Shown: piece after piece, positions 26,832 through 53,082 of the stretch | Layout of the letters: each line of letters starts with the position of its first letter | Position numbering within the stretch: position 1 is the first letter of the stretch | Translations under genes and position numbers: made by a program | DNA from: Lachnospiraceae bacterium JLR.KK002 | Lineage (GTDB): Bacteria > Bacillota > Clostridia > Lachnospirales > Lachnospiraceae | Length of the DNA stretch: 64,000 nucleotides | Assembly: GCA_036941025.1 (NCBI GenBank) | Contig: JAYMNP010000001.1 | Span: 2,068,501-2,132,500 of the forward strand | Reading direction: 5' to 3' | The notes under the pieces: model-generated | Seen by the model: only the letters and a program-made list of their open reading frames with translations | Told to the model about the DNA's origin: nothing | Database searches by the model: none

Positions 26832-28590
26832 TAGGCGTTTGCGAAACGCCAGAACCCACATAAATACGGGATTCTCTTTGTTACAAAATAAAACAACTCC
26901 TCACTGGTCTGTGGTATAATTGAAATGTCCAGTAACAATTATCCATATCCACCAGTAAAGGAGTCGTATCTATATGATAACACATAAACAGCTCTCTTTG
27001 GCAGATATTTTTACCGATTGCCAAAATAAATTTGATAATGATAAATATCAGTTCCTTGCACTTCTCGAAAATACCATCAACTTAGATGAAATGGTCCCAG
27101 TGTCCTTTATTTCTCATTTCCATGCTGCCACTGGCAGGCCCCGTAAGCATCTGCTTTATCCAATGCTCAGGGCTCTGTTATTACAGCTTATCTTCTCAAT
27201 CCCAACAACATCCCTGCTGATCATATTCCTGAAATACTCCCAGGAACTGCGGGACTTCTGTGGGTTTGATGTTGTCCCGGATGCCTCTAAATTCACCCGG
27301 TTCAAACAGGATTTTTTATCGGACTTACAATCCATGTTCGATCATCTTGCTGACTTGACCGAACCGATCTGCCATTGTATTGATACACAGAAAGCTTCCA
27401 TGCTTCTCTTTGACACCTCCGGCATTGAGGCATGGGTTACAGAAAACAATCCCAAATATGCCAACCGTATCATCAAACAGCTGAAAGCCTTCAAAAAAGC
27501 AAAAGGGATGGCCGATTCCTTTGACCCTTATAAAGCCGCCTACGGCTCCATGCCTTCCCATGCTGCCGCCAGTCCAGCCATTCAGCAGATGTACATTAAC
27601 GGGCATTTCTGTTATGCTTATAAATTCGGCATTATTACCAACGGACTCGGCATTGTCCGGGATATTTCCTTTTATAACAAGGACTTTCTTGCGGCTCATC
27701 CTGACATCATTGTTGGAAAAAAATCTGATTCCCCGGATGAAGATAAGAGTCTTGCCGATTCCAGGGCATTGATTCCCACTTTAAAGGATTTCTTTCGCAA
27801 GCATCCGCTTATCAATCCGAAAACTTTTCTGGGAGACGCCGCATTTGATTCCATTGAAATCTACAAATACCTGTTACAGGAAGCTTCCTTTGAGCAGGCT
27901 TACATTCCCCTCAACGGCAGAATCTCCCTTCCAAAATCCGACTGCCCGCTGAATAAGGACGGCATCCCCTGCTGCCCCAAAGACCCATCCCTTCCAATGA
28001 AACGGGAAGGAAGCAAATCCCATCTCCGCTGCGGACTGCCAACCATGAAGTTTGTATGCCCGAAAATGAAATGGGAATATGATAAATCAACCGGTAAGAG
28101 CAAACGCGTCTGCCACTGTGAAAATCCCTGTACTGAATCCCCCTGCGGCAGGATGTTTTATATTTATCCCGAGAAAAACCTGCGCGCCTATCCTGGTACG
28201 CTCCGTAGTACGGCCGAATGGGATTCCACCTATAAGATCAGAGTAAATGTTGAGAAATCAATCAACCATTTCAAGGACAGCTTCTGTGTTGCCGGGCGTA
28301 AAACGCAGAATGAAAAAACGCTTCATGCTGACCTGCTTCTCGCCGGGATTACCCAGCTTATTACTGTAATGGTGGCTGATAAACTGCACAGGCATGAATA
28401 TATCCGCAGTTTAAAACCTCTGATTGCATAACCTTACATACCGCATACCATTTCACGGGCAGATATCCTTATCTGCTTTGTTTTCATGTCTTAAAATCCT
28501 TGTTATCCACATCCACCTCCTGTAAGTCCGGCTCAACCGGGCCTTTGCCCTATTGGAATCAAGATTTTGAACTTGTTTCGCAATTACCTA
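26832..28590 (+). mobile_element. Unclassified DDE insertion sequence (ends approximate)
   Basis: One transposase gene between weak inverted ends: TAGGCGTTTGCGAAAC from 26832 and the reverse complement of TAGGTAATTGCGAAAC ending at 28590 (13 of 16 identical). No clear target duplication. The second copy of the IS5/IS1182-like element begins four bases further on. Confidence 0.6.
26974..28431 (+). CDS. DDE transposase, ISNCY/IS1182-like
   Basis: 485 residues, preceded by AAGGAGTCGTATCT. N-terminal LRALLLQLIFSIPTTSLLII and CGFDVVPDASKFTRFKQDF resemble the DUF772 region. The catalytic part has LLFDTSGIEAW (D), TFLGDAAFDSIEIYKYL (D) and a Cys-rich stretch near residues 325-390 (CPLNKDGIPCC, then CHCENPCTESPCG), ending with INHFKDSF. 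I recall such Cys-rich insertions in clostridial transposases of this group; the exact family is not assigned. Confidence 0.8.
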   Translation: MITHKQLSLADIFTDCQNKFDNDKYQFLALLENTINLDEMVPVSFISHFHAATGRPRKHLLYPMLRALLLQLIFSIPTTSLLIIFLKYSQELRDFCGFDVVPDASKFTRFKQDFLSDLQSMFDHLADLTEPICHCIDTQKASMLLFDTSGIEAWVTENNPKYANRIIKQLKAFKKAKGMADSFDPYKAAYGSMPSHAAASPAIQQMYINGHFCYAYKFGIITNGLGIVRDISFYNKDFLAAHPDIIVGKKSDSPDEDKSLADSRALIPTLKDFFRKHPLINPKTFLGDAAFDSIEIYKYLLQEASFEQAYIPLNGRISLPKSDCPLNKDGIPCCPKDPSLPMKREGSKSHLRCGLPTMKFVCPKMKWEYDKSTGKSKRVCHCENPCTESPCGRMFYIYPEKNLRAYPGTLRSTAEWDSTYKIRVNVEKSINHFKDSFCVAGRKTQNEKTLHADLLLAGITQLITVMVADKLHRHEYIRSLKPLIA

Positions 28591-28593
28591 TAT

Positions 28594-30195
28594 AGTGTCT
28601 GCTGATTAAGCAAATATTTGCAACTTCCAACTCTTACATCTGCTCCAGTTACACCAAAATCGGATCAGATACAAAAGAGCATAAAGTATTCGCCTCTGAA
28701 TCTTGAATAGATTCATCACAAATACAGATAATGCGACAGAAGTTAACTGCGTTTCCTCCAGCTTGGTGGTAATACAGTCCATGCCATAGCAGCGTTTGCT
28801 TAAGCTAAAAGTACGTTCCACTTCGATTCTGTCAGTATTATCCTGATACTCTTGTTTTTTATCAACTTTTACTGCAGCACTTGGTCTGCCCAGTTTTGGT
28901 CCTGACAGACGGATCCCATGCTCTTTGCAATAACTCCTGTTTTCTCTGGTCCGGTATATCTGATCTGCCAGCACACGTTTCGGATAATAACCGGTGCGTT
29001 CCTTGAAGCGTTCTACCGCTTCAATCAGGCAGGTGCTCTCGTTATATGCTTCAAACGATATTTTTTCGATGCGTCCGTATCCTTCACTGTCAAGGCTTAG
29101 ATCAAACTTTGCACCAAATTCAACTGGGGCTTTTACTTTCCCCCTGACAATAGGACGAAGCCATGGCTGCGAGATGCTTACGATACGATGTTCCACTGAG
29201 TGTACTTTGTTATCGTACATGTACTTCTGCTGCTCGTACAGCGTGATGATAGTCAGATACAAACTAATTTCTTTATCTGTCATCGCATATCCGTCGCTCA
29301 TGAACTTTTCCAGATATCCGATGTCTCTTGCAACGTAACCAAGCTGTTTGCGCAGTGCCTTCCTGATTTTCTTTGCACTATGTTTTTTACTTTTGGCAAA
29401 TGAAAGATAATCTTTTCTGGCACGTCTTCTATAGCGTCTTGGCAGTGGAAGACCATAGGATTTGCAAAAACGGTAAATGATGGTTTCCAGTTTCTCCCTT
29501 GCTTCGTTCAGGAGTGAAATATCCTGGGGATAACGGATGTCTGCCGGTGCACAGGTTGCGTCCAGTGTCAGTGTTCCTTTGTTTGTGTCTTCTTTCAAAG
29601 CGTCATTATCGCCGGAGTTTCCGGAAGATGGTGGTGTATTGTTGTCATCATCTTTGTGAGCAAGAAGATACTCATTTACTTCCATCAGCATTTCAGCAGA
29701 AATGCGTTTGCGAAAAAGAACCAGTGTGCTTGCATCAAACGGAGCTTCTTCCTGATAGCCGGGAAGTCCGATAAAGTACTGCAGATATGGATTCTCTGTG
29801 ATCTGTTCCACGAGTTCACGATCAGAATACTGGAACTTGGTCTGGATGATCAGGGCTCCTAACGCCATCCGAAATGGCTTGGCAACATTACCCGTACCAC
29901 TCGGGAACAGTCTGGCATATTTTACTTCAAATTCATCCCATGGGATTCGGTCAGCCAGTTTGATCCAGCGGTTATCCGAGTTCATGTGGAGTCCCATAGG
30001 CTGGTTGAAATCGAGAAACGAGTGGTGTAACTTGTTAATAGGTTTGTACATTGATTTAGCCCCTTTATACATAAAATATGCAGAATAACTGCAAGAAAAA
30101 CGGTTTGATTTTATCAAAATCCTTGCAGGTATTATACCATAAAATGCGGTAAAAGTCGGTAAAATCAAGTGTTTTAAACCTAATCAGCAGACACT
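28594..30195 (-). mobile_element. IS element copy 2 (IS5/IS1182-like), 1602 bp
   Basis: Same termini as copy 1 (AGTGTCTGCTGATTA at 28594 and its complement ending 30195), flanked by the 4-bp duplication ATAT (28590-28593, 30196-30199). It is in opposite orientation to copy 1 and differs from it at several residues, so it is a related but separate copy. Confidence 0.9.
28606..30051 (-). CDS. DDE transposase of IS copy 2
   Basis: About 481 residues from the ATG at 30051 (AAAGGGGCTAAATCA upstream). Closely related to the copy 1 protein, with differences concentrated in the linker near residues 150-165 (DDDNNTPPSSGNSG here, DDDKDDHTPPSVGKSG there) and in several surface positions. All core motifs, including LTLDATCAP and the C-terminal ERTFSLSKRCYG, are kept. 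Confidence 0.85.
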   Translation of the reverse strand: MYKPINKLHHSFLDFNQPMGLHMNSDNRWIKLADRIPWDEFEVKYARLFPSGTGNVAKPFRMALGALIIQTKFQYSDRELVEQITENPYLQYFIGLPGYQEEAPFDASTLVLFRKRISAEMLMEVNEYLLAHKDDDNNTPPSSGNSGDNDALKEDTNKGTLTLDATCAPADIRYPQDISLLNEAREKLETIIYRFCKSYGLPLPRRYRRRARKDYLSFAKSKKHSAKKIRKALRKQLGYVARDIGYLEKFMSDGYAMTDKEISLYLTIITLYEQQKYMYDNKVHSVEHRIVSISQPWLRPIVRGKVKAPVEFGAKFDLSLDSEGYGRIEKISFEAYNESTCLIEAVERFKERTGYYPKRVLADQIYRTRENRSYCKEHGIRLSGPKLGRPSAAVKVDKKQEYQDNTDRIEVERTFSLSKRCYGMDCITTKLEETQLTSVALSVFVMNLFKIQRRILYALLYLIRFWCNWSRCKSWKLQIFA

Positions 30196-30213
30196 ATATA
30201 TATTTTCTGGCAG

Positions 30214-30246
30214 CAAAAAAGAGCCTGTTTTTACGACTGGCTCTAA
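30214..30246 (-). terminator. Likely terminator of the Panacea operon
   Basis: On the minus strand AGAGCC and GGCTCT arms flank a 13-base loop and are followed by TTTTTT. It lies about 150 bases beyond the stop of the membrane protein. Confidence 0.5.
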
Positions 30247-30398
30247 AGTCGTTTTTTAAGATTGTGCTTCCTGCTGCAGCACATATGCACCCGCATATTT
30301 TTCTCTTGCGTTCCGCTGCCCAATTTTCTATTTTATAGATAGAAAAAGGTAAAGCCTCTTTCTCTCACGATAGCGAACATTTACAAGATGAGCATTTG

Positions 30399-31119
30399 TT
30401 ATTTGCTCCAAGGCAGAAATTCAGATATAAAATCAGGTAATTGATTAGCATTCAACAACCATGCAACTATTATGACAAACGTGATAACTAGACACGCAAT
30501 ATTCAATGCTTTAACGTTAAAAAAATTTGTATTCTTCTCATTTATTGTAAAAATAAACTTAACTAAAATATAAATGGTATTGATAAGAATAAATGCCAAA
30601 AAATCAATCACTAACAATAATCTGAATATACTTACCATTGATATGTTTTGCAAAACAGATGTAGAAAATGTAATACCACCTACAAAAGCCAATACAATAG
30701 CTGCAAAAATTCCCAGTATGGATATATACTCTTTTTCAACACTTTTAATTTCCTTTTGCAAGTTTTCCTTGGCTTCCTTGATACTGTTAGCAAAAATATT
30801 ATTAACATTTTCTATCTGATGCAACGCAAGTTGAAAATGGTCATAAATTTTAACTATCAATTTTTTACTATCCTCTGCAACATTATTATTTTCGTCCAAA
30901 GAATATAACAACAATTTTTCTAGATTAGTTGCAAAAATACCTCGTTGTGCCATTTCTAATGAAAAAACATAATTGCTTATCTCTGAATATAGTATCCTGT
31001 CTAACTTATTAGGTGATGCAATATAAGCATTGATGTTTTCAACTGTCTTCTGCGGGTCATATTTTTTCGTTTCTAGTGTTAATGCTTTACAAATTGCATT
31101 TATTGTCTGTATAATGGGG
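30399..31119 (-). pseudogene. Membrane coiled-coil partner of Panacea, 3' part (split by IS200)
   Basis: The frame is open from the IS junction at 31119 to the stop at 30399; an internal ATG at 30953 would give a 184-residue fragment. Joined to the 5' part (31740-31840), the two pieces make 822 bases, exactly 274 codons, reading through the junction as KRKLNPIIQTINA. In the 273-residue whole, residues about 120-165 are a coiled coil (ANSIKEAKENLQKEIKSVEK) and three hydrophobic segments lie near 166-188, 197-224 and 236-256. No family recognised. By position it is the toxin/effector partner of the Panacea antitoxin. The IS insertion should abolish the full-length protein, although the internal ATG could give a membrane fragment. 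Confidence 0.75.
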
Positions 31120-31739
31120 TTAAAACCCTCGCCTTTAGGCGAAACCTTTAGGTAAACCCCATAGCTTCAAGTTTAGAAAAGGTGAAAACAGAGATACTAA
31201 ACTTGAGGTGAAAGAAATGGAAAATTACAGAAAGTCAGCACATTGCACATACGATATCAAGTACCATTTAGTCTGGATAACAAAATATCGAAAACCAGTG
31301 ATAACAGGAAAAATAGCGATAAGAACAAGAGAACTCATCAGAATCATCTGCCAGAGCAATGAAGTAGAAATACTGGCAGGACATGTTGGAAATGACCATA
31401 TCCATCTGTTGGTATCCGTTCCGCCGCATTTGTCAGCGAGTAAGTTGGTACAGTATATAAAAGGGAATACGTCGCGAAAATTGCAGATGGAATATAAAGA
31501 ATTAAATAAGCAATTCTGGGGTCAACACTTGTGGGCAAGAGGCTATTTTGTAGCAAGCAGTGGAAATGTAACAGATGAAATCATCAAGGAGTATATCAAG
31601 AATCAAGATCTGCAAGAGAGGAGCAATTCTGATAACTTTGAGATAGGATAAAAGTAATGGGATACCGATAACTTGCAGCATGCACAACTTTAGGCTGCTT
31701 TAGCAGCATGTTGAACCTACCGGCTTTAGCCGGTAGTGG
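31120..31739 (+). mobile_element. IS200-type element (about 620 bp)
   Basis: Encodes one Y1 transposase and has small hairpins near both ends: CGCCTTTAGGCG near 31130-31141 and ACCGGCTTTAGCCGGT near 31720-31735. No inverted repeats or target duplication, as expected. The boundaries were set by requiring the interrupted gene to rejoin in frame. Confidence 0.85.
31217..31651 (+). CDS. tnpA: IS200/IS605 Y1 transposase TnpA
   Basis: 144 residues from the ATG at 31217 (TTGAGGTGAAAGAA upstream; a GTG at 31208 is in frame). The HUH motif is HIHLLVSVPP in AGHVGNDHIHLL, and the catalytic tyrosine is in the C-terminal helix ...IIKEYIKNQD. It is within the 130-150 residue range of the family. It moves single-stranded DNA at replication forks. 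Confidence 0.95.
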   Translation: MENYRKSAHCTYDIKYHLVWITKYRKPVITGKIAIRTRELIRIICQSNEVEILAGHVGNDHIHLLVSVPPHLSASKLVQYIKGNTSRKLQMEYKELNKQFWGQHLWARGYFVASSGNVTDEIIKEYIKNQDLQERSNSDNFEIG

Positions 31740-31840
31740 TTCAGTTTTCTTTTAGTATTATTGAATTTTTTTGACTGCTCCAAAGACATTGTTGTGTTAT
31801 CCGTTGTTCGAAGCAGCACATCCAAACCATCATCAGCCAT
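31740..31840 (-). pseudogene. Membrane coiled-coil partner of Panacea, 5' part
   Basis: Starts at the ATG at 31840, which overlaps the last eight bases of the Panacea gene (AATGGCTGA), so it was translated by coupling. It encodes MADDGLDVLLRTTDN and continues to the IS200 junction after KRKL. Hydrophilic N-terminus without a signal peptide. See the 3' part for the reconstructed protein. Confidence 0.75.
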
Positions 31841-32318
31841 TAAAATACTCCCTTATTGCCTCAATTGTAATCTCATTGTTTTGATATGGAACATAAGCAT
31901 CAATCCATGGTGACTGTTTATGCGTTAATGATACAAGGTCAGTAGCAGAATATTCTGAAAACTTATCTATAACCTTATCTATGAGTGACTTGTCTTCATC
32001 TAAAATAATGTCATCATGAAAACAAACTCTCTTAGAATTCCAAATATCATCCTCGACTAATACAATATAAGATTTGACAGTGGGAATATCTCCACTTCCA
32101 TATTGCTTATACTCATGATATGCTTCTGGCACAACAGGGCCAAAATCCCATGCCTCAATTTTTTCATCAAAACAAAGAGTGTGGTCTTTTTTATTCGTCA
32201 AAAAATAAGCTTGTATGAAATAAAGCACTTTCTGGAGTTTAAGATTGGAAATGCCATAATCGTTCTCATTACTATAATTTATCACATGACGGCAAACATC
32301 TAATACGTTGTAGCTCAT
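31833..32318 (-). CDS. Panacea-domain (SocA/DUF4065-like) antitoxin
   Basis: 161 residues. NVLDVCRHVINYSNE, then ISNLKLQKVLYFIQAYFL and IEAWDFGPVVPEAYHEYKQYG, is the Panacea fold signature (LKLQKLLYF, WxxGPVxxxxY). Panacea proteins are antitoxins paired with many unrelated toxins. The start is preceded by AAGGAGGTCAAGATA, and TATAAT near 32350 may be the -10. The gene is intact, while its downstream partner is split by IS200. Neutralisation of that membrane protein is inference from family knowledge and gene order. Confidence 0.85.
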   Translation of the reverse strand: MSYNVLDVCRHVINYSNENDYGISNLKLQKVLYFIQAYFLTNKKDHTLCFDEKIEAWDFGPVVPEAYHEYKQYGSGDIPTVKSYIVLVEDDIWNSKRVCFHDDIILDEDKSLIDKVIDKFSEYSATDLVSLTHKQSPWIDAYVPYQNNEITIEAIREYFNG

Positions 32319-32393
32319 TATCTTGACCTCCTTCCTTTGTGAATACTTATTATATCACTTTTTATAGGATTTGTGGTAACTTTTAATAAATTT

Positions 32394-32549
32394 TTATGTT
32401 ATCCAATCCACTATGATGATTTGATATGCGGCATCGTAAATCTCCTGCGTGCTTTTGCTTAGGTTGTCCTCACGGAAATCGGCAAGCTCACGCTGTACTT
32501 TTTCAGCCAGGTTTTGATTCAGGGACTGTCTGTACTTTTGGTAATCTAA
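32394..32549 (-). pseudogene. DUF3848-like remnant without start
   Basis: The frame encodes DYQKYRQSLNQNLAEKVQRE and continues to ...IYDAAYQIIIVDWIT. It resembles the N-terminal part of small DUF3848-type proteins of conjugative elements. A strong AAGGAGG site is present just upstream, but the expected start codon is replaced by an in-frame TGA, so it looks decayed. Confidence 0.4.
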
Positions 32550-32719
32550 TCACACACCTCCTTGAAAATAAAATATGCTGAGGGATTTTCATTGTGAAAA
32601 CCTCTCGGCTATGTAAAATATTATAAAATTGTAATAAAAAGTAAATAGCAATTGGAAGAAGTAGAGCTATTAATTTCAATTTCTATGTCTAAATACTAAT
32701 TATTTATTTGGTTTCTTCT
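32550..32719. other. AT-rich gap with one end of a 16-of-18 direct repeat
   Basis: No gene. The 18 bases at 32601-32618 (CCTCTCGGCTATGTAAAA) match those at 48601-48618 at 16 positions, in the same orientation. The two copies bracket AbiGi, the TnpX-type transposon and DUF4365. Confidence 0.4.
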
Positions 32720-33454
32720 TTATTGAATCAATATTTTATTTTCATATAATCTGAAATTATCTTTTAACTCATAACACAATAAAGATGCACTTTCCTGATT
32801 TGGTACTATTATAGTTTCCAAATCATCAAGCGTAAATTTTAGAGTATATCTCTGTATCATATGATTATTTAATTTTTCTTTTTCTTTCTCATTATCCACT
32901 GTTTCTGGCATAAGTCGATTACAATAACCATCTATTTTAACGCCAGTATCCTTAAACGGTGGTAAATATCTCCATTCTCGTTCATCATAGAATGGTTTAG
33001 AATTTAATGTCATATCATGACTGTATTCTTTAAGAAATCCAGCATAGTTCATAAAAGCGTCCATCAATTCAAGCGCATTAGGTCTATCCATATTTTCATC
33101 ATCTAATTTTAATGCATTTTGCACTACAACCCATTGTAAGTGATTATATGCATTATATATTTCAGAACCTTTTATCATATAACTAATTGGATTGAGTCCT
33201 TTTTTTATACCCCATTCTTTTTTCATTCCAAGTCCAAATAAGCCATATTCTTTTCTATGCTCATCTGCTAACTTAATTGGTATATCCGTAAAACAAACCA
33301 TCGGAATCCCAACTCTCGCTTCTTTATATTCTGGCATCATAAATGATATATCTTCAATGGCTGTCATTGGCCAAAATCCTTCTTTTAATATAGAAATCAA
33401 TACATCAATATTTCTTGTAAAATGATATAAAAAATTTGAACTTGATTGATACCA
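32720..33454 (-). pseudogene. AbiGi-type abortive infection protein, 5' end displaced by transposon
   Basis: The remaining frame begins WYQSSSNFLYHFTRNIDVLI and contains GIPMVCFTDIPIKLADEH, YGLFGLGMKKEWG and FYDEREWRYLPPF, which I recognise as the AbiGi family (PF10899, antitoxin-like half of AbiG). The start codon is missing here: a 12.67-kb transposon sits at codon 8. Joining 33454 to GA plus 46128-46146 restores ATG TGG AGT GAA TAT CTT and a 756-base gene (251 residues). The frame now runs leftwards out of the transposon end without a good start (only a GTG at 33508 inside a hairpin). No AbiGii toxin is visible nearby. Confidence 0.75.
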
Positions 33455-33460
33455 GATAAG
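33452..33460 (+). repeat. Left attachment copy of the TnpX-type element
   Basis: CCAGATAAG, with the GA dinucleotide at 33455-33456. The same nine bases occur in direct orientation at 46123-46131. GA is the crossover dinucleotide used by Tn4451-type TnpX recombinases. Confidence 0.75.
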
Positions 33461-33516
33461 GATAAAAATAGATATGTATGGGCAGGAGCATAGATTTTCT
33501 CCTGCCACGCCTATAT

Positions 33517-35175
33517 TTAGGCGGTTTGACGTTTGGTACGTTTTCCGTATTCACGTTCCATTTCCCGCATTTCTTCATCCGTTGGAATATCTACAATCCC
33601 GACATAGGAATAGTAGATGTCAATATCCTGTGTCCGTTTCCCGTCTTTTTTCTCGCATTCGTGGACTATGATTTTATCCACAAAAGTATTTAAAATTTCG
33701 GGCGTTAGCTCGTCAATACGGGTATATTTTTTGGTAACGGCTATCAGCTTGGAAACATTGGTTGCTTCTGTGTCGGCTTCACTGACTTCGGCTTTCAAGG
33801 CTTCGATTTCCTGTTTTAGCTGTTCCTGCTCGGCTTCATATCCATCTGACAGCTTGTAAAAGCGTTCGTCATTCAACTTTCCATTGACATTATCCTCATA
33901 GATTTTACGGAACAGGCGGTCAAGCTCTTCCATGCGCTTTTCGTCCTTTTCAATCTGTTTCTGCTTTGCGGATAATTCGTATCGGCGTTCCGCAAGGGTA
34001 GTGTCAATCTGTTGTCGGATAAATACCCTTTCAAACTGCTGTAAATAGGACAGGAAATGCTGAAGTTGTTTTAATACCAACTGGTATAGGGCATCTTCTC
34101 TGACATAATGCTGTGTGCATGCGCCGCTCCTGCTGTTTCCTTTATATTTGGAACAGCGGAAATACAGATAGCTCTTTGAGGAGCGCAGGCTTAGCTTTGT
34201 ACCGCAGTCAGCACATTCCAGTAATCCTGTGAAAATGCTTGTCGCACCGTTTTTTGTCGGTCTGCGTTTATTTACCCGTATCATCTGCACTTTGTCCCAT
34301 AGTTCCCTGTCAATAATAGGGGTGTGGGCATTTTCGATATACGTCCGCATTTCTTTTGCGGTAGGAATACGCTTTTTGCTCTTAAAGCCTAAGCGGGTAG
34401 ATTTAAAATTTTCTGTAACACCGATATATGCCACGTTTTCAAGAATTAATGCTACTGTGGTAGATTCCCAATTATATGGGTTTCCTGACACGATTGCCGC
34501 TTCTAATCCTTTTGAAGCCTTATATGCGGATGGGGTTAATATTTTATCTTCCCAAAGTATATCAGCAATAGCAGATATTCCCTTTCCCTGCATACAGAGT
34601 GAAAATATCCTGCGGACAACTGCCGCAGCTTCCTCATCCACAAGCCAACGGGTTTTGTCATCTGGATTCCGTAAATATCCGTATGGCGGCGGTCCCAGAT
34701 GTTCTCCTGCAAGCCCTTTCGCTTTCTTGACTTCCTTCACCTTTTTGCTCGTGCTTTTTGGATACCATTCGTTGAATAGGTTGGTAAATGCGGCAAATTC
34801 GTTGCTCTCAAGGCTGCCCGTGTCCACGTTGTCCATGATGGCGATGAACCTCACGCCCGCTTCGGGGTAGATGATTTCGGAGTAAGAGCCAACCTCGATA
34901 TAATTCCTGCCGAAGCGTGATAAGTCTTTGACAATGACGGTCTTTACAAGCCCTTTTTCAATGTCCGCCGACATTTCCTTAAAGCTTGGGCGGTCAAAAT
35001 TTGTACCCGTATAGCCGTCGTCCACATAGAATTTCGGGTTAGGGAAACCGTGTTCTTTTGCGTATTTCATCAGATATTCTTTCTGGTTTACGATGCTGTT
35101 GCTTTCACCTTCCCGCCCATCATCTTGGCTTAATCTACAATATAATGCCGTGAATTCTTCCTGCTGTCTTTTCAT
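33517..35175 (-). CDS. Large serine recombinase, TnpX-like
   Basis: 552 residues from the ATG at 35175 (GGAAAGGAGAGCTTT upstream). The resolvase domain carries the nucleophile Ser16 in ALYCRLSQDDG and VKDLSRFGRNYIEVG. A recombinase domain follows (PPPYGYLRNPDDKTRW), then a zinc ribbon (LECADCGTKLSLR ... FRCSKYKGNSRSGAC) and a coiled coil (about 395-500). It is the last gene before the left end and should excise the element as a circle at GA dinucleotides. Confidence 0.93.
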   Translation of the reverse strand: MKRQQEEFTALYCRLSQDDGREGESNSIVNQKEYLMKYAKEHGFPNPKFYVDDGYTGTNFDRPSFKEMSADIEKGLVKTVIVKDLSRFGRNYIEVGSYSEIIYPEAGVRFIAIMDNVDTGSLESNEFAAFTNLFNEWYPKSTSKKVKEVKKAKGLAGEHLGPPPYGYLRNPDDKTRWLVDEEAAAVVRRIFSLCMQGKGISAIADILWEDKILTPSAYKASKGLEAAIVSGNPYNWESTTVALILENVAYIGVTENFKSTRLGFKSKKRIPTAKEMRTYIENAHTPIIDRELWDKVQMIRVNKRRPTKNGATSIFTGLLECADCGTKLSLRSSKSYLYFRCSKYKGNSRSGACTQHYVREDALYQLVLKQLQHFLSYLQQFERVFIRQQIDTTLAERRYELSAKQKQIEKDEKRMEELDRLFRKIYEDNVNGKLNDERFYKLSDGYEAEQEQLKQEIEALKAEVSEADTEATNVSKLIAVTKKYTRIDELTPEILNTFVDKIIVHECEKKDGKRTQDIDIYYSYVGIVDIPTDEEMREMEREYGKRTKRQTA

Positions 35176-35283
35176 AAAGCTCTCCTTTCCGACAGCAGAC
35201 ACGGTATTGTGAAGTGTAGGTACAGTGTACCACATCTGTCCTCAAACTTCAACGCTTTAAAGCGGTAATTCTTCCGCTGCCTG

Positions 35284-35586
35284 TTATTCCCCGTCATCAT
35301 CACCCCAATTCTCATTATCATAAAATCCATATCCCTGTGCGCCACGCCGAAAAATATCCGTAAGCATTACAAGCAAATCCCTCCCGTCTTTTCGGAAGTG
35401 GGCGTTGACGGTGTATTCCGTGCCGCCGATTTTCTCGGTAATGCTCATCGGCTCTGGGATGCGGACAAGGGGCGTGACGTTCTGGACAGGCGGCAAAGGG
35501 GGATATATTTTGTCGGGATTTACCATAGGGACATTCTTGTATTCCTCCATAATCGCCTGTATTTCTTCCTCGGACAGTCTGCTCAT
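35284..35586 (-). CDS. TnpW-like small transposon protein
   Basis: 100 residues. The central ITEKIGGTEYTVNAHF followed by LVMLTDIFRRG is the pattern of TnpW proteins in Tn4451-type transposons. The role is unknown. The ATG at 35586 overlaps the end of the relaxase gene (ATGA at 35583-35586), so it is translated with it. The N-terminal 35 residues are proline-rich. Confidence 0.65.
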   Translation of the reverse strand: MSRLSEEEIQAIMEEYKNVPMVNPDKIYPPLPPVQNVTPLVRIPEPMSITEKIGGTEYTVNAHFRKDGRDLLVMLTDIFRRGAQGYGFYDNENWGDDDGE

Positions 35587-36947
35587 CGCAATGATTCCTC
35601 CCTCCTGCGGTCTGTTTTTACTGGCTGTTTCTGCCGATTCGACCTCTGATTTTCAATCGTATCATGGATTTGGTTTAAGCAGTCATCAATGTGTGCGGAG
35701 CGTCTTTCAATCCCGTCTGCATATTTCAGACGTTTCCTAAGCTCCGTTATCTGCTCCGTTACGCCCTGCTTTTCTTCCCGAATTTTTTCTTTTTCGGCTG
35801 GTGTGGCACGGCGTACCTTGTTCCGCAAATGCTGTCGGTAGTCAATCAGTTTATTCATTTCGGTCTGGTTTTTCTCTCTGTCGGCGTGTAAGTCGGAGAG
35901 GGTTGAGATGTTATGCTTTGACATATACCTTACCTGTGCGGTAATCTCGTCCAGTTTCCGCAGCTCCTCTTTCATCATCGGGCTTGTCGGCTTGTAGTCC
36001 GTGCCTTTGGGGAATATCCCTAACTGATAGCACCAGTAGTAATACAACGCTAAAATTCCCATGGTTTTCTGATGCGGTTTCCATGCGTTTTTGTACTGCT
36101 CTGGCATATGCGGGGAGTAGGAAATTCTTGCTTTGTAGTTCCCATATCGGGAAGTCCCGCCTAAACATGACCGTATGAAATCGGGTGTCAGCCGCTCGTC
36201 AAGCGTGTCTAACCTTGTGAAGTGCTTGTACTGTGGCAGCTTCATCTTCCAATGACCGCCCGAAAAATCAACCTCATATCCTTTATCGGTAAGGTATTTT
36301 ATCATGTGCTGTAAATCCCTGCTCCCGTTGATTGCCTCCCTTAAATCCTCCCGATAGACGTTGTACCGTGTCGGCTTTCCGCTTTTTTCGTCCAGATACA
36401 GCGGTCTTGACGGTGCTTTCTTCGGGTTTTCAATTACCGACAAACTGTACTCTCGGCATAAGCGGTCGGACACTTCCCGCAACCGTTTCTGCTCCGATTT
36501 TGAGTAATTGTATTTGCTCCCATCCAGATAAGAAACGGAGTTAAAGCAGAAATGGTTGTGGAGATGTCCTTTGTCAAGGTGGGTGGCAACGATTATCTGG
36601 TATTTATCACCCCACATTTCCCTTGCCAGTTTCAATCCGATTTCGTGGCATTGTTCGGGCGTTACCTCGTCTGGCTTGAAGCTCTGGTAGCCGTGCCATG
36701 CGATATACCCGCCTGTCTTTTGGTACTGTTTCTTCGTCAAAATCATCTGCTGTAAGGCGGTTTCTTTCAGACAGTTGACAGCGGAAACATACTCGCCTTC
36801 ATTTGTTTTTGACGTATTCTCCACATAGGAAAACACGTCAAAGAAGTCCTGCATATCTTGATTCTGCACGGTCTTTTCTGGGTTTTCTATATAGTCAATC
36901 ACATCTTTTATGCTCCCTTTGACATGCCATAGGCTCGTTACCGCCAT
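35583..36947 (-). CDS. MobP-type relaxase
   Basis: 454 residues. The HUH motif is HLDKGHLHNHFCFNSVSYL with HLHNH at residues 128-132; an N-terminal YIENPEKT stretch and C-terminal coiled coil (about 330-440) complete the usual form. It nicks the transposon oriT so that the circle can be moved by a helper conjugation system. Start is inside mobC (ten-base overlap). Confidence 0.9.
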   Translation of the reverse strand: MAVTSLWHVKGSIKDVIDYIENPEKTVQNQDMQDFFDVFSYVENTSKTNEGEYVSAVNCLKETALQQMILTKKQYQKTGGYIAWHGYQSFKPDEVTPEQCHEIGLKLAREMWGDKYQIIVATHLDKGHLHNHFCFNSVSYLDGSKYNYSKSEQKRLREVSDRLCREYSLSVIENPKKAPSRPLYLDEKSGKPTRYNVYREDLREAINGSRDLQHMIKYLTDKGYEVDFSGGHWKMKLPQYKHFTRLDTLDERLTPDFIRSCLGGTSRYGNYKARISYSPHMPEQYKNAWKPHQKTMGILALYYYWCYQLGIFPKGTDYKPTSPMMKEELRKLDEITAQVRYMSKHNISTLSDLHADREKNQTEMNKLIDYRQHLRNKVRRATPAEKEKIREEKQGVTEQITELRKRLKYADGIERRSAHIDDCLNQIHDTIENQRSNRQKQPVKTDRRREESLR

Positions 36948-37306
36948 ATCAGACCGCCCCCTTGTTCCGTCAATTCTTCTATGCTGAACCGTTGTGGGAG
37001 AGTAGATTTCTGTTGCAGTTCTAAGATAAAATCCTCAATCTCCTTACAGATTTCAACGGCGGTTGGATAGTAGGGGACACATTTTTTGAAAGCGTCATGC
37101 ACCTCATAGAGCCTGTTTAACAGCTCCCAAAACTCGGTTTTAGGCTGTGACTGCGGGGCGTTTCCTTTGCATAACTGGCGCATAAATTCTGCTGCGGACA
37201 GACCGCAAGCGGCGGCGCACTGCTTTAATTTTTCATGTTCTTCCTCGTTCAGTCGGACGGTAATCGGGACATTCCGCACGTCCTTTTCTGATTTTTCTTT
37301 GCTCAT
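36938..37306 (-). CDS. mobC: MobC-type relaxosome protein
   Basis: 122 residues. The N-terminal VPITVRLNEEEHEKLKQCAA is ribbon-helix-helix-like, then GLSAAEFMRQLCKG. The C-terminal helix is acidic. It lies directly upstream of the relaxase. The start follows TTAAGGAAA. Confidence 0.8.
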   Translation of the reverse strand: MSKEKSEKDVRNVPITVRLNEEEHEKLKQCAAACGLSAAEFMRQLCKGNAPQSQPKTEFWELLNRLYEVHDAFKKCVPYYPTAVEICKEIEDFILELQQKSTLPQRFSIEELTEQGGGLIWR

Positions 37307-37770
37307 TTTCCTTAATCCTCCAGTCTTATTTTTCTTTCTTCGGGGCAGACAGGGGCTGTTCCCTGGGTGAAGTCCACACGCCTTTAGGCTGTGGATTGGA
37401 TTGTGGCTGACACAATCCGATGCTCGCTATCTCTGTGGACAACTCCGCAGAGCATTTTTCTGTGTAGCCGACATCTTCCATACCTGTCTTACCCTCCGAA
37501 AAGAAAATCCTATGTCCTTTCCACCTCCGTTCTGGATTCGGTTTCTCTTAACTTTTGGATAAATGAAAAAGCCGCTACACTGCACTACGAACGACAGGAG
37601 TATTTTCTCCTGTTCGGATTCGCAATGCTATGTAACGGCTTTGGGATTCAAAACCTTGCTGCCATACGCCAGCCGAAAAGGACGGCTTACGTTCGGCGAC
37701 AGTCAGCTTTATCCATTGGCTGACATTCCATTCTTCCATCTATGTGCTATTTAATTTTCAATCTTCAAGA
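37307..37770. other. Non-coding mob leader with candidate oriT and large hairpin
   Basis: No convincing gene. Short repeats near 37370-37420 (GGCTGTGGATTGGATTG, then ACAATCC pairing with GGATTGT) fit an origin of transfer upstream of mobC. A long imperfect hairpin spans 37568-37642 with AAAGCCG and CGGCTTT outer arms and an inner ACAGGAG/CTCCTGT stem. A further hairpin with GCCGAA/TTCGGC arms lies near 37673-37700. Confidence 0.4.
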
Positions 37771-38220
37771 TTACTTCCTGCGTTTCTTAAATTTCTCCTT
37801 TGCATACTCATAGGATTCTTGGATATATGGTTTCAATTCCTCGAATGTCTGTTCAGAGGGGTTCAATGCACATATCCACGCCATCCATGCGTAGACGGGA
37901 TGGGGGAGTATCTCATTCAATACGGTAAAGTCGTAATCCATATCTACAACGCCGCCCGCTGGTGGACGTTTTGGGACTGTTCCAAACAATTCCGTAAAAG
38001 TGCTTTTCCGTATTCCCAAATTCACACGGTAGACGTTCTCTCTGTTTAAATCAGAGCCTTTGTCATTATCGCCATCCTTTTCCTTAACTGTCAATATATA
38101 AACGCCACGCTTCAGTACATGGTCTGGGTTATAGAAAATCCCTTTCTCGCCCCAACTCTCAACTAAGACTGTTCCCTCAAGATTTTGAAGGCAGTAATTC
38201 AATATTTTATCTGGTGTCAT
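37771..38220 (-). CDS. DUF6194-like protein
   Basis: 149 residues. GVYILTVKEKDGDND, VYRVNLGIRKSTFTELFG and MPHPVYAWM-like HPVYAWMAWICALNP match the DUF6194 family as I recall it, a small soluble protein of unknown biochemical role related in shape to MmcQ/YjbR-type proteins. It is common as cargo in such transposons. Monocistronic. Confidence 0.6.
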   Translation of the reverse strand: MTPDKILNYCLQNLEGTVLVESWGEKGIFYNPDHVLKRGVYILTVKEKDGDNDKGSDLNRENVYRVNLGIRKSTFTELFGTVPKRPPAGGVVDMDYDFTVLNEILPHPVYAWMAWICALNPSEQTFEELKPYIQESYEYAKEKFKKRRK

Positions 38221-50884: not shown

Positions 50885-51211
50885 TCATATCATATTAAAA
50901 TGCCTAAACGCCGCCATAATCGCTTTTTCTTTCTCCGGCGGGCATTGCGGTACACGGCTTTTATTTTCGCCTACATTGTAATTCAGACGTTTCTCAATAC
51001 CGCATTTATCTTTTATCTGTGCTACATACAGTGACGATACCTTTAAACCATACTCTGATTTTATCCATTCTTTGATTTCTGTATAGGTTGCACAGCCTTT
51101 GACATCCTTCAGATATTCATTATCTTTCGGCTCATAATCAACATAAGCATAGACTGTTTCAGCAGTGTTACTATTTCCTACCCAAAAGGACGCACGTCTC
51201 AACATGTTCAC
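50885..51211 (-). CDS. RlmD/RumA-type C-terminal fragment at the element boundary
   Basis: The frame from 51211 overlaps the recombinase end. From residue about 20 on, AYVDYEPKDNEYLKDVKG, then ATYTEIKEWIKSEYGLKVSS and QCPPEKEKAI...FNMI, matches what I recall as the C-terminal extension of clostridial 23S rRNA (uracil-5-)-methyltransferases. No catalytic domain is present. Recombinases of this group insert in rlmD, and such tails flank them. It may be host gene remnant or a carried replacement tail. Confidence 0.55.
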   Translation of the reverse strand: MNMLRRASFWVGNSNTAETVYAYVDYEPKDNEYLKDVKGCATYTEIKEWIKSEYGLKVSSLYVAQIKDKCGIEKRLNYNVGENKSRVPQCPPEKEKAIMAAFRHFNMI

Positions 51212-52847
51212 CGTTGTCCAAACCTATACTTAAATCATTTTCAATAATCGGCAGCTTAAACCGAATTGATTTAAGCCACTGACCATTGGGTTTGCGTTCC
51301 TCATAAATCTGTATTTCTGCAATCAACGCTTCGATAAGCTGTCGCCGTTCCACATCGTTCATAGCGAAATACAATTTGTCAAAATAAATCAATACCTTGT
51401 AAATATTATCCCCTGTGATTTTCTCGGCTTCGATGGATGTCTTTTTGGCTCTGGCGTCCATCAACTGCGATTCCAGTTCTTCTATCTTATCATACATCCG
51501 ATAAAGCCTGTCATCAAGGTCTGCCTTTCTTCTGATATAATGTCTGTCATCGGGATTGAGGTTATCAATTTCCTCAATCAGCTTCGATTTGATGGCATAA
51601 TCTTGACGGAGCTGTTTTTCATAATTGGTTATCTCTTGGTCTATGGCGGTCGTATCAACTTTCATGTTGATTTTTTCCTGCATCATTGCCGCAAAATGGG
51701 GATTACTGACTAGCTTTACTATCACTTCGGCTACGGCATCGTCCAGAAGTTCTTCCCTTATCTGCTTTCTGTAATCGCATTTATGCCCCCGCTGCATACC
51801 ACGGTGTTTACACCCATAATAGAAGAAATCCTTGTATTTCGTTCCGTCCTTTTTGTATTTGATGCTCTTGTTCCCATACATCCCCGCTCCGCATATGGGA
51901 CACTTCACAATCCCAGAAAGCAGATGCGTCCGCTCGTTCTTTCCCTTATTGACGTGTTCATACTTCTTCGCCTGTGCAATCAGTTTTGCCTGCGCCGCAT
52001 TCCAGACATCTTCTGGGATAATCGCTTCATGCAGTCCGTCTACCAAAAGAAAATTTTCCTGCTCCACGAGATGGTATTCATTCCGTGTCCCGTGGACTTT
52101 TTCTGTTTTCCTGCGTCCATAAGCAATTTTACCGCAATAGACTGGATTTTTCAATATCAGTCGGACTAAGTGGGCATCAAAAAGAGGGTTCTTCCCATTC
52201 TGACGCTGTATCTTACGGATGCCGTGGTTTTCCAGATATTTTGAAATCCCATTTGAGCCAATATCCGTATTCACATACTGTTCATAGATGGTTCGGATTG
52301 CAACCGCTTCTTCTTCGTTAATTTCCAACTTGCCATTTACGAGCTGGTATCCATATGGCGCAAATCCGCCGTTCCATTTCCCCTCTCTGGCTTTCTGGAT
52401 TCTACCCTCCATTGTCTGGACACGGATATTCTCACGCTCAATTTCGGCTACCGCCGACAAAACGGAAATCATCAGCTTGCCCGCATCTTTGGATGAATCA
52501 ATCCCATCCTCCACGCAGATTAGGTTCACTCCGAAGTCCTGCATGACCTGCAAAGTGGAAAGGACGTCTGCCGCATTTCTCCCAAAACGGGATAACTTGA
52601 ATACCAAGACATAAGAAATGTTATCTTTTCCTGACTTTACATCCTCCATCATCTGTCTGAATTGCATCCGCCCTTCAATGGATTTGCCCGATTTCCCCGC
52701 ATCCTCATACTCGCCTACAATTTCATAGTCATTGAAATCTGCATACGCTTTCATCCTTGACCTCTGTGCGTCCAGTGAATAACCGTCAATCTGCATGGCG
52801 GTGGAAACCCTCTTATAAGTGTAAACCTTTATTCTTTCTTTGTTCAT
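51171..52847 (-). CDS. Large serine recombinase of the conjugative transposon
   Basis: 558 residues from the ATG at 52847 (AAAAGGAGTTGCTGATACT upstream). The nucleophile is Ser15 in VYTYKRVSTAMQIDGYSLD; VFKLSRFGRNAADVL follows. Zinc ribbon IVKCPICGAGMYGNK ... FYYGCKHRGMQRGHKC and a C-terminal coiled coil. The last residues, GEHVETCVLLGRK, equal an RlmD-like stretch, so the attachment site is at its 3' end. It directs integration of the element extending rightward. Confidence 0.92.
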   Translation of the reverse strand: MNKERIKVYTYKRVSTAMQIDGYSLDAQRSRMKAYADFNDYEIVGEYEDAGKSGKSIEGRMQFRQMMEDVKSGKDNISYVLVFKLSRFGRNAADVLSTLQVMQDFGVNLICVEDGIDSSKDAGKLMISVLSAVAEIERENIRVQTMEGRIQKAREGKWNGGFAPYGYQLVNGKLEINEEEAVAIRTIYEQYVNTDIGSNGISKYLENHGIRKIQRQNGKNPLFDAHLVRLILKNPVYCGKIAYGRRKTEKVHGTRNEYHLVEQENFLLVDGLHEAIIPEDVWNAAQAKLIAQAKKYEHVNKGKNERTHLLSGIVKCPICGAGMYGNKSIKYKKDGTKYKDFFYYGCKHRGMQRGHKCDYRKQIREELLDDAVAEVIVKLVSNPHFAAMMQEKINMKVDTTAIDQEITNYEKQLRQDYAIKSKLIEEIDNLNPDDRHYIRRKADLDDRLYRMYDKIEELESQLMDARAKKTSIEAEKITGDNIYKVLIYFDKLYFAMNDVERRQLIEALIAEIQIYEERKPNGQWLKSIRFKLPIIENDLSIGLDNGEHVETCVLLGRK

Positions 52848-52908
52848 AGTATCAGCAACTCCTTTTTTACCAAAACCGTGATATTTATTTTCTGCACTTA
52901 AAATTGTA

Positions 52909-53082
52909 TCAGCGATTCTCTGAAACAACAAATGTGCGATTTTGGTGAATATTAGAGTCGCTGTTATATTCTTTGTTATGACTGGCATCGGGCATACCGT
53001 CTATACCCAGTTCGGAAGCGTATTTTGCTATCAGATTTGCCAACAGGTCAGCTAATCCGTTCCACTCATCATCAATGAGCAT
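52909..53082 (-). CDS. Small conserved ORF between MazF and recombinase
   Basis: 57 residues from the ATG at 53082. LADLLANLIAKYASELGIDG is a helix similar to small proteins I recall in front of such recombinases. Function unknown. It begins 20 bases after the mazF-type stop and ends 61 bases before the recombinase start, so the three are likely cotranscribed. Confidence 0.55.
   Translation of the reverse strand: MLIDDEWNGLADLLANLIAKYASELGIDGMPDASHNKEYNSDSNIHQNRTFVVSENR

What the first reader, a model, noticed from the sequence alone, without database searches (positions are those of the whole stretch)
30399..32318. Panacea antitoxin coupled to an unrecognised 273-residue membrane coiled-coil partner, split by IS200
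Seen: the Panacea gene stop overlaps the next ATG (31840). That gene is cut at 31740 by a 620-bp IS200 element and continues at 31119. The joined parts are 822 bases, exactly 274 codons, and read KRKLNPIIQTINA across the join. The product has a coiled coil and three hydrophobic segments and matches no toxin I know. Known: Panacea domains neutralise diverse toxins encoded beside them. Inference: this is a membrane-acting toxin or abortive-infection effector not described before, here inactivated by insertion while the antitoxin persists. This is my best candidate for a new system in the window.
Basis: partly seen in the sequence, partly recalled or inferred. Interest (0 to 1): 0.78.

Follow-up and report, generated by a model that had tools for sequence, protein, structure and literature searches.

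The report
IS200-broken membrane toxin with Panacea antitoxin
A jumping gene has recently broken the probable toxin half of a bacterial toxin-antitoxin pair; intact relatives of this membrane protein are found in gut bacteria, Campylobacter-type bacteria and phages, almost always beside the same kind of antitoxin, so it is a new member of a known kind rather than a new system.

Summary
One detail is wrong. The element is about 642 bp (31104-31745), not 620, as six other copies in this genome and intact relatives show.

The partner belongs to a large family (917, 1036 and 128 overlapping hits from three queries) that no Pfam, NCBIfam or PADLOC model names. In 51 of 55 distinct loci examined a Panacea gene lies directly upstream; the four exceptions are two decayed remnants and two contig-end cuts. 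All 43 distinct toxins compared share an invariant Tyr and His in an N-terminal domain; 39 carry a YITILGIF-type signature entering 3-4 hydrophobic segments.

Best reading: a type II toxin-antitoxin pair whose toxin depolarises the membrane, inactivated here by a recent insertion. "Not described before" is doubtful: Kurata et al. 2022 validated a Panacea-neutralised Helicobacter toxin with a similar layout, and relatives occur in Helicobacter. I could not get that sequence.

The parts
31833..32318 (-). panA: Panacea-domain antitoxin gene, 161 aa, open
   Evidence: PF13274 E 1.7e-20; 83.8-87.0% identical to the Panacea genes of L008-L013 and L022
31746..31840 (-). 5' piece of the panT-like toxin gene; reading from its ATG runs into the element and stops after 46 residues
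   Evidence: boundary uncertain by a base
31104..31745 (.). IS200-type element interrupting the toxin gene, about 642 bp, preceded by TTTAT
   Evidence: seven copies in the genome compared
31208..31651 (+). tnpA, Y1 transposase of the element
   Evidence: PF01797 E 6.8e-44; NF033573 E 2.9e-46
30399..31103 (-). 3' piece of the panT-like toxin gene: rest of the helical domain, possible coiled coil, YISILGIF signature, hydrophobic segments
   Evidence: hydropathy on the intact relative P0006
32349..32354 (-). promoter-like -10 (TATAAT) upstream of panA, invariant in 9 of 9 aligned rows (8 distinct loci)
   Evidence: alignment only, not a functional test
32327..32331 (-). Shine-Dalgarno-like GGAGG before panA

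Best explanation
This is a type II toxin-antitoxin pair of the PanAT kind, carried as cargo beside a mobilisation/recombinase module. PanA, a stand-alone Panacea domain, is made first from a short operon. It binds its partner PanT and holds it inactive. PanT has an N-terminal helical domain (invariant Tyr and His), an amphipathic coiled-coil-like helix, and a C-terminal membrane module of 3-4 hydrophobic segments entered through a YI(T/S)ILGIF signature. When PanA is titrated or lost (phage infection is the likeliest trigger, or loss of the element), PanT is proposed to oligomerise through the coiled coil, insert in the inner membrane and collapse the membrane potential, stopping growth or aborting infection. 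In this genome an IS200 element recently split panT after about 32 codons, so toxin activity is presumably lost while panA stays open as an orphan antitoxin. SHOWN here: gene order, overlap, insertion, family, linkage, conservation. INFERRED: toxicity, neutralisation, depolarisation, the trigger, and any phage defence.
For: Linkage: 51 of 55 distinct family loci have Panacea directly upstream on the same strand; gaps of -71 to +28 nt in 43 distinct measured pairs. Co-divergence: tree distances of PanA and PanT correlate (Spearman 0.66 over 33 representatives, 0 of 2000 shuffles reach it). The linkage crosses lineages: Blautia, Peptoniphilus and others, a Helicobacter rodentium prophage and a Listeria phage. 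Conserved architecture: Tyr and His in 43 of 43 distinct toxins, YITILGIF-type signature in 39 of 43. Literature: Panacea antitoxins bind and neutralise their toxins; PanT_Hel.sp. (coiled-coil-like region plus C-terminal TM) depolarises the membrane without SYTOX uptake (PMC8832971). A stand-alone Panacea domain is reported to neutralise a membrane PanT directly, with mutational support (PMC10440598 passages). Recency of the insertion: six of seven IS copies identical over 642 bp, the seventh differing at one base; a 98%-identical uninterrupted 266-aa protein is in the database, its source column blank (P0003).
Against: No toxicity or neutralisation was measured here. Of 25 pairs tested in Kurata et al., 8 PanTs were not toxic in E. 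coli, 5 were toxic but not rescued by their PanA and 3 could not be cloned, so linkage alone does not prove a TA pair. No fold could be predicted and no solved structure matches. The coiled coil rests on a crude periodicity test that one of four relatives failed. The invariant Tyr/His pair in the soluble domain suggests more than a passive pore former. Identity with PanT_Hel.sp. was not tested by sequence, and the paper introduces its membrane toxins by way of 'putative small peptides'; I did not see that protein's length.
Confidence: 0.7

Rival explanations
1. The partner is a PanT whose soluble Tyr/His domain is a ligand-binding or enzymatic module and the membrane part is only an anchor; killing is by an activity other than depolarisation.
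For: Tyr and His are invariant in 43 of 43 distinct toxins although 28 N-terminal domains average about 20% column identity. Published PanTs include enzymes such as toxSAS, Fic/Doc, RNases and a putative cyclase.
Against: In 299 genomes the N-terminal domain was not found convincingly without the membrane part: of 12 hits, 11 are family members and one (L123, E 8.5e-4, partial, no His region, no Pfam family, no Panacea beside it) is weak and probably unrelated. The membrane signature is itself conserved in 39 of 43. No enzyme family matches above cut-off in the proteins scanned.
Confidence: 0.18
2. The pair is a Panacea-coupled phage sensor/effector, not a classical TA: PanA is mainly a sensor of phage components and PanT an abortive-infection effector without stand-alone toxicity.
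For: Relatives lie in prophages and phages, for example between the lysin and integrase genes of a Listeria phage. The window pair lies next to an AbiGi gene. The 2023 paper proposes Panacea as a sensor (abstract passage).
Against: Operon order, gene overlap and published PanAT behaviour fit ordinary TA equally well; I saw no phage data for this family in what I read.
Confidence: 0.3
3. The two genes are merely neighbours on mobile DNA and the partner has an unrelated membrane function.
For: Many of the loci lie on viral contigs or beside recombinase genes; no function is tested.
Against: 51 of 55 linkage across distant bacteria and phages with co-divergence is not expected from chance neighbours.
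Confidence: 0.03

Closest known systems
PanA_Hel.sp.-PanT_Hel.sp. (Helicobacter sp. 13S00482-2, WP_095295401.1/WP_095295403.1; Kurata et al. 2022, PMC8832971)
   Same: Panacea antitoxin gene paired with a toxin having an N-terminal coiled-coil-like region and C-terminal membrane helices; relatives of the window gene occur in a Helicobacter rodentium prophage and in H. bilis.
   Different: Sequence homology to that very protein was not tested (no tool gave its sequence or length); the window copy is broken by IS200; a different bacterial lineage.
PanT_Esc.col. (T3) and PanT_Bar.api. (T12) membrane toxins
   Same: Panacea-neutralised membrane toxins that depolarise the membrane.
   Different: [quoted passage not shown] No sequence comparison was made here.
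phrog_5763 (PHROGs, unknown function)
   Same: The relatives P0006, P0131, P0245 and P0246 match it at 8e-21 to 2e-41: the family is known as an unannotated phage protein.
   Different: PHROGs gives no function or Panacea link.
SLATT predicted pore-forming effectors
   Same: One relative (P0131) shows a weak NCBIfam SLATT_4 match at residues 172-231, E 4.4e-4, 20 bits; predicted membrane effectors (recalled).
   Different: Far below the curated cut-off of 55 bits; different genomic partner; not a member on this evidence.

Membership tests
PanAT (Panacea-neutralised type II TA) | Antitoxin with a Panacea/SocA domain | tested here: met
   PF13274, 74.4 bits against cut-off 25.7
PanAT (Panacea-neutralised type II TA) | Two-gene overlapping or adjacent operon with the partner conserved across genomes | tested here: met
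   51 of 55 distinct loci; gaps -71 to +28 nt in 43 distinct pairs
PanAT (Panacea-neutralised type II TA) | Partner is toxic and is rescued by PanA | not testable with these tools
   needs expression assays
PanAT (Panacea-neutralised type II TA) | Direct protein-protein complex | not testable with these tools
   structure tool off
PanT_Hel.sp.-type membrane toxin | C-terminal TM helices | tested here: met
   hydropathy of five relatives: three or four hydrophobic regions in the C-terminal half
PanT_Hel.sp.-type membrane toxin | N-terminal coiled-coil-like region | tested here: inconclusive
   hydrophobic periodicity of 3.55-3.6 in 3 of 4 relatives; the fourth (P0198) peaked at 4.55; no dedicated coiled-coil program was run
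PanT_Hel.sp.-type membrane toxin | Sequence homology to WP_095295403.1 | not tested
   sequence not obtainable; relatives in Helicobacter and Campylobacter found
PanT_Hel.sp.-type membrane toxin | Depolarises membrane without large pores | not testable with these tools
   needs dye assays
IS200 (single-tnpA IS200/IS605; features recalled) | Y1 transposase and a fixed short 5' target without target duplication | tested here: met
   Y1_Tnp/NF033573; TTTAT before 7 of 7 copies and differing right flanks
IS200 (single-tnpA IS200/IS605; features recalled) | Hairpin-forming ends | not tested
   inverted stretches seen by eye only
SLATT | Match to a SLATT profile above its cut-off | tested here: not met
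   NF033632 20.1 bits against 55; no SLATT among the Pfam matches listed

The most novel reading that the evidence does not exclude
A lineage-crossing, Panacea-dependent family of gated membrane effectors that no protein library used here names: an N-terminal helical domain with an invariant Tyr and His (and a near-invariant Lys) is the switch (Panacea docking and/or a small ligand), and a YITILGIF-entered membrane module is the executioner, making it a regulated depolarising channel used by phages and mobile elements against rival phages. Its invariant soluble residues would set it apart from membrane toxins that are little more than a pore.
Probability: 0.2. Interest if true: 0.6.

Novelty: new member of a known kind. 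Interest (0 to 1): 0.42.

Why it matters
The family is large, spans Bacillota, Campylobacterota and phages (phyla recalled from the genus names), and the members scanned have no naming entry in Pfam, NCBIfam or PADLOC, yet it sits with a Panacea antitoxin in 51 of 55 places examined. A profile for it would let annotation pipelines recognise hundreds of unnamed probable toxins. It also offers a set of diverse natural PanA-PanT pairs for asking how one antitoxin domain neutralises a membrane toxin, and what the invariant Tyr and His do.

Tried and rejected
Chance adjacency: rejected by 51 of 55 linkage. Rows kept out of the family count: L037 (OpuAC/BPD_transp_1 transporter) and L038 (Pkinase with PASTA), both E about 1e-3 and shown unrelated by Pfam; and L123 (E 8.5e-4, match over 9-87 of 136 positions with one stop inside, a 472-residue frame with no Pfam family), which I think unrelated but cannot exclude as a distant relative of the N-terminal domain without Panacea.

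SLATT membership: tested, not met. One search found four sub-threshold PF18160 matches in 150 genomes, none followed up. A non-coding antitoxin: Rfam found nothing at gathering score in 28000-38000. Plasmid carriage: no match in PLSDB with P0006. A broad phylum sample: 0 of 397 other genomes matched with A5, although relatives exist in other taxa by other searches; in the rows shown at most 5 candidates per genome were scored, so its sensitivity is limited. Viral scans: P0131 found no relative; P0246 and P0339 found only loci already held. DefensePredictor paper: no Panacea mention in the main text (passage search). Pfam matches of family members were below cut-off except DUF3112 in L033, 23.5 bits against 23.3 with no single stretch passing; precomputed Pfam labels appear for 1 of 120 listed proteins (PF20990) and 3 of 120 (PF20990 twice, PF00523 once). 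I treat these as chance membrane-helix matches. PADLOC gave only an E 0.066 match for P0246. Literature searches; among their listings only the two PNAS papers deal with Panacea partners at length. Supplementary files could not be read, so I cannot say the family is absent from the papers' cluster tables.

Full report
WHAT IS THERE. On the minus strand, panA (31833-32318, 161 aa) matches Panacea/SocA (PF13274, E 1.7e-20, 74.4 bits against a cut-off of 25.7). Its stop overlaps by 8 nt the ATG (31840) of the next gene. That gene is split by an element carrying a Y1 transposase of the IS200 type (31208-31651, plus strand). It is the only Panacea gene found in this genome. No Rfam family was found at gathering score in 28000-38000.

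THE INSERTION. Searching the genome with 31090-31760 gave seven copies, the window's included. Comparing them puts the element at 31104-31745, 642 bp, with one terminal T ambiguous. Six copies are identical over that length and one differs at a single base. TTTAT precedes all seven, and the right flanks differ. Reading from the ATG runs 46 residues and stops inside the element. A downstream ATG opens a 184-aa frame; I did not test whether it is expressed. P0003, 98% identical and uninterrupted (its source column is blank, so I cannot say where it comes from), together with the near-identity of the IS copies, points to a recent insertion (inference).

THE PARTNER FAMILY. The 239-residue piece finds 917 proteins at E <= 0.001 among 1408 candidates; none of the 120 listed has a precomputed Pfam domain. 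A 37%-identical relative in the genus (L004) finds 1036 of 3871 candidates. A Helicobacter rodentium prophage relative finds 128 of 1706, with named hits in Helicobacter bilis, several Campylobacter, Aliarcobacter and Peptostreptococcus. The three hit sets overlap. No Pfam or NCBIfam model names the members scanned. Matches stay below the curated cut-offs, except DUF3112 for L033 at 23.5 against 23.3 bits with no single stretch passing. PADLOC gives only an E 0.066 match for P0246. A few listed relatives carry precomputed PF20990 or PF00523 labels (1 of 120, 3 of 120). PHROGs gives phrog_5763, unknown function. No solved structure matches the profile. In the window's genus 3 of 29 genomes match, the window included; in its family 14 of 397, the window included and two of them unrelated proteins; in a phylum sample 0 of 397 others, with a shallow first look.

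LINKAGE TO PANACEA. I examined 55 distinct family loci: the window; L003-L005; L008-L014; L022-L024; 11; 28; and two. Repeats were removed: L028 equals L010, L106 equals L105, and L076, L082, L107 and L108 equal L022, L023, L024 and L079. L099/L100 (98%) and L084/L085/L087 (97-98%) are near-identical but were kept. 51 of the 55 have a Panacea gene directly upstream on the same strand. The four exceptions are L014 (5'-truncated, in-frame stop) and L027 (five stops inside), both remnants, and L039 and L095, both cut at a contig end. Among the 51 are broken copies too: the window, L005 and L124. Two further hits are a transporter (L037) and a kinase (L038) by Pfam. L123 is a weak partial match in a 472-residue frame without Pfam family or Panacea neighbour, probably unrelated. 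In the pairs measured (44 rows, 43 distinct) the gap is -71 to +28 nt. Not measured there: L032, whose long overlap fell outside the script's range; the cut or repeated viral loci L082, L083, L095, L096, L100 and L106; and the window, L005, L014, L027, L039, L121 and L124. Tree distances of the two genes correlate (Spearman 0.66 over 33 representatives; 0 of 2000 shuffles). This shows shared history; it does not by itself prove binding.

ANATOMY. Across the same 44 rows (43 distinct) a Tyr (position 71 of L008) and a His (121) are invariant, a Lys (117) is present in 42 rows, and the stretch at 158-165 reads [YF][IVL]x[ILV]LG[ILV]F in 40 rows, 39 distinct. The four without the full stretch (L031, L033, L035, L036) keep the Tyr and His. 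The N-terminal domains of 28 members average about 20% column identity. A search of 299 genomes with that domain alone gave 12 hits: 11 are family members, among them the broken window copy, one at a contig end (L122) and one decayed (L124), and the twelfth is L123. The open members also carry the membrane part and a Panacea neighbour, so I found no convincing separate use of the domain. Hydropathy gives three main hydrophobic regions in P0006, P0131 and P0245, three or four in P0310, and four in the Listeria phage protein P0246. The stretch before the first segment has hydrophobic periodicity of 3.55-3.6 in three of four relatives; the fourth peaked at 4.55. That is only weak evidence for a coiled coil; no dedicated program was run.

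EXPRESSION AND SURROUNDINGS. Upstream of panA a TATAAT is invariant in 9 of 9 aligned rows (8 distinct loci, the window included), followed by a GGAGG-like site in most. In four of seven relatives with long flanks (L008, L009, L010, L022) the pair follows a large serine recombinase 40-54% identical to the window's own at 51171-52988. In the window the pair lies behind an AbiGi gene (32720-33508), a serine recombinase, a MobA-type relaxase and a NikA-like gene, that is, in the cargo position of a mobilisable element (inference). In the Listeria phage the pair lies between the lysin and the integrase genes, a usual place for lysogenic cargo (recalled).

MECHANISM. Panacea antitoxins bind and neutralise diverse toxins, and membrane toxins are a main class (PMC8832971: passages, and sections 6 and 10 read). 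PanT_Hel.sp. has C-terminal TM helices and an N-terminal coiled-coil-like region; it depolarises E. coli without SYTOX uptake. In PMC10440598 (passages only) a stand-alone Panacea domain is reported to neutralise a membrane PanT directly, and the authors suggest Panacea is a sensor. I therefore think it most likely that the intact family is a depolarising toxin held by its PanA and released on phage infection or element loss. Toxicity, neutralisation and trigger are inferred; of 25 pairs tested in that paper several were not toxic or not rescued. In the window copy the toxin is broken and panA is left as an orphan, which may still protect against related incoming toxins (inference).

NOVELTY. 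The kind is described, and PanT_Hel.sp. may well be a member of this very family; the missing sequence comparison is the single test that would settle it. Against that, the paper introduces its membrane toxins by way of 'putative small peptides', and I did not see the length of PanT_Hel.sp. New here, on what I could search (papers; supplements not readable), are the extent of the family, its near-exclusive linkage, the invariant Tyr/His domain and the YITILGIF signature. I score it as a new member of a known kind, of moderate interest.

Noticed in passing
window 32720-33508 (-): AbiGi-like gene (PF10899 E 6.6e-25; PADLOC AbiGi 3e-39) directly after a serine recombinase; I did not search for its AbiGii partner.
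   Followed up: partly
window 33517-37306 (-): Serine recombinase with DUF4368, MobA/VirD2-type relaxase and NikA-like gene: a mobilisable element next to the pair.
   Followed up: partly
G000 (seven places): The IS200 element is present in seven nearly identical copies (one base different in one copy), all preceded by TTTAT: recent burst of transposition in this genome.
   Followed up: yes
L008, L009, L010, L022: PanAT pair lies right after a large serine recombinase related (40-54% identity) to window 51171-52988, as if riding at the integrase end of mobile elements.
   Followed up: partly
G011:C23 (L005-L007): Another genome of the genus carries a frame-broken relative of the toxin behind an open Panacea gene, a second case of toxin decay with the antitoxin kept.
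   Followed up: partly
L033, L034: Longer family members (478 and 415 aa) with additional C-terminal hydrophobic or soluble parts behind Panacea; function unexplored.
   Followed up: no
L123:304-1722 (-): A 472-residue frame without Pfam family weakly matches the N-terminal domain profile (E 8.5e-4, part only) and has no Panacea or membrane part.
   Followed up: partly
window 37771-38220 (-): DUF6194 gene (PF19694 E 2.4e-50) near the relaxase module.
   Followed up: no
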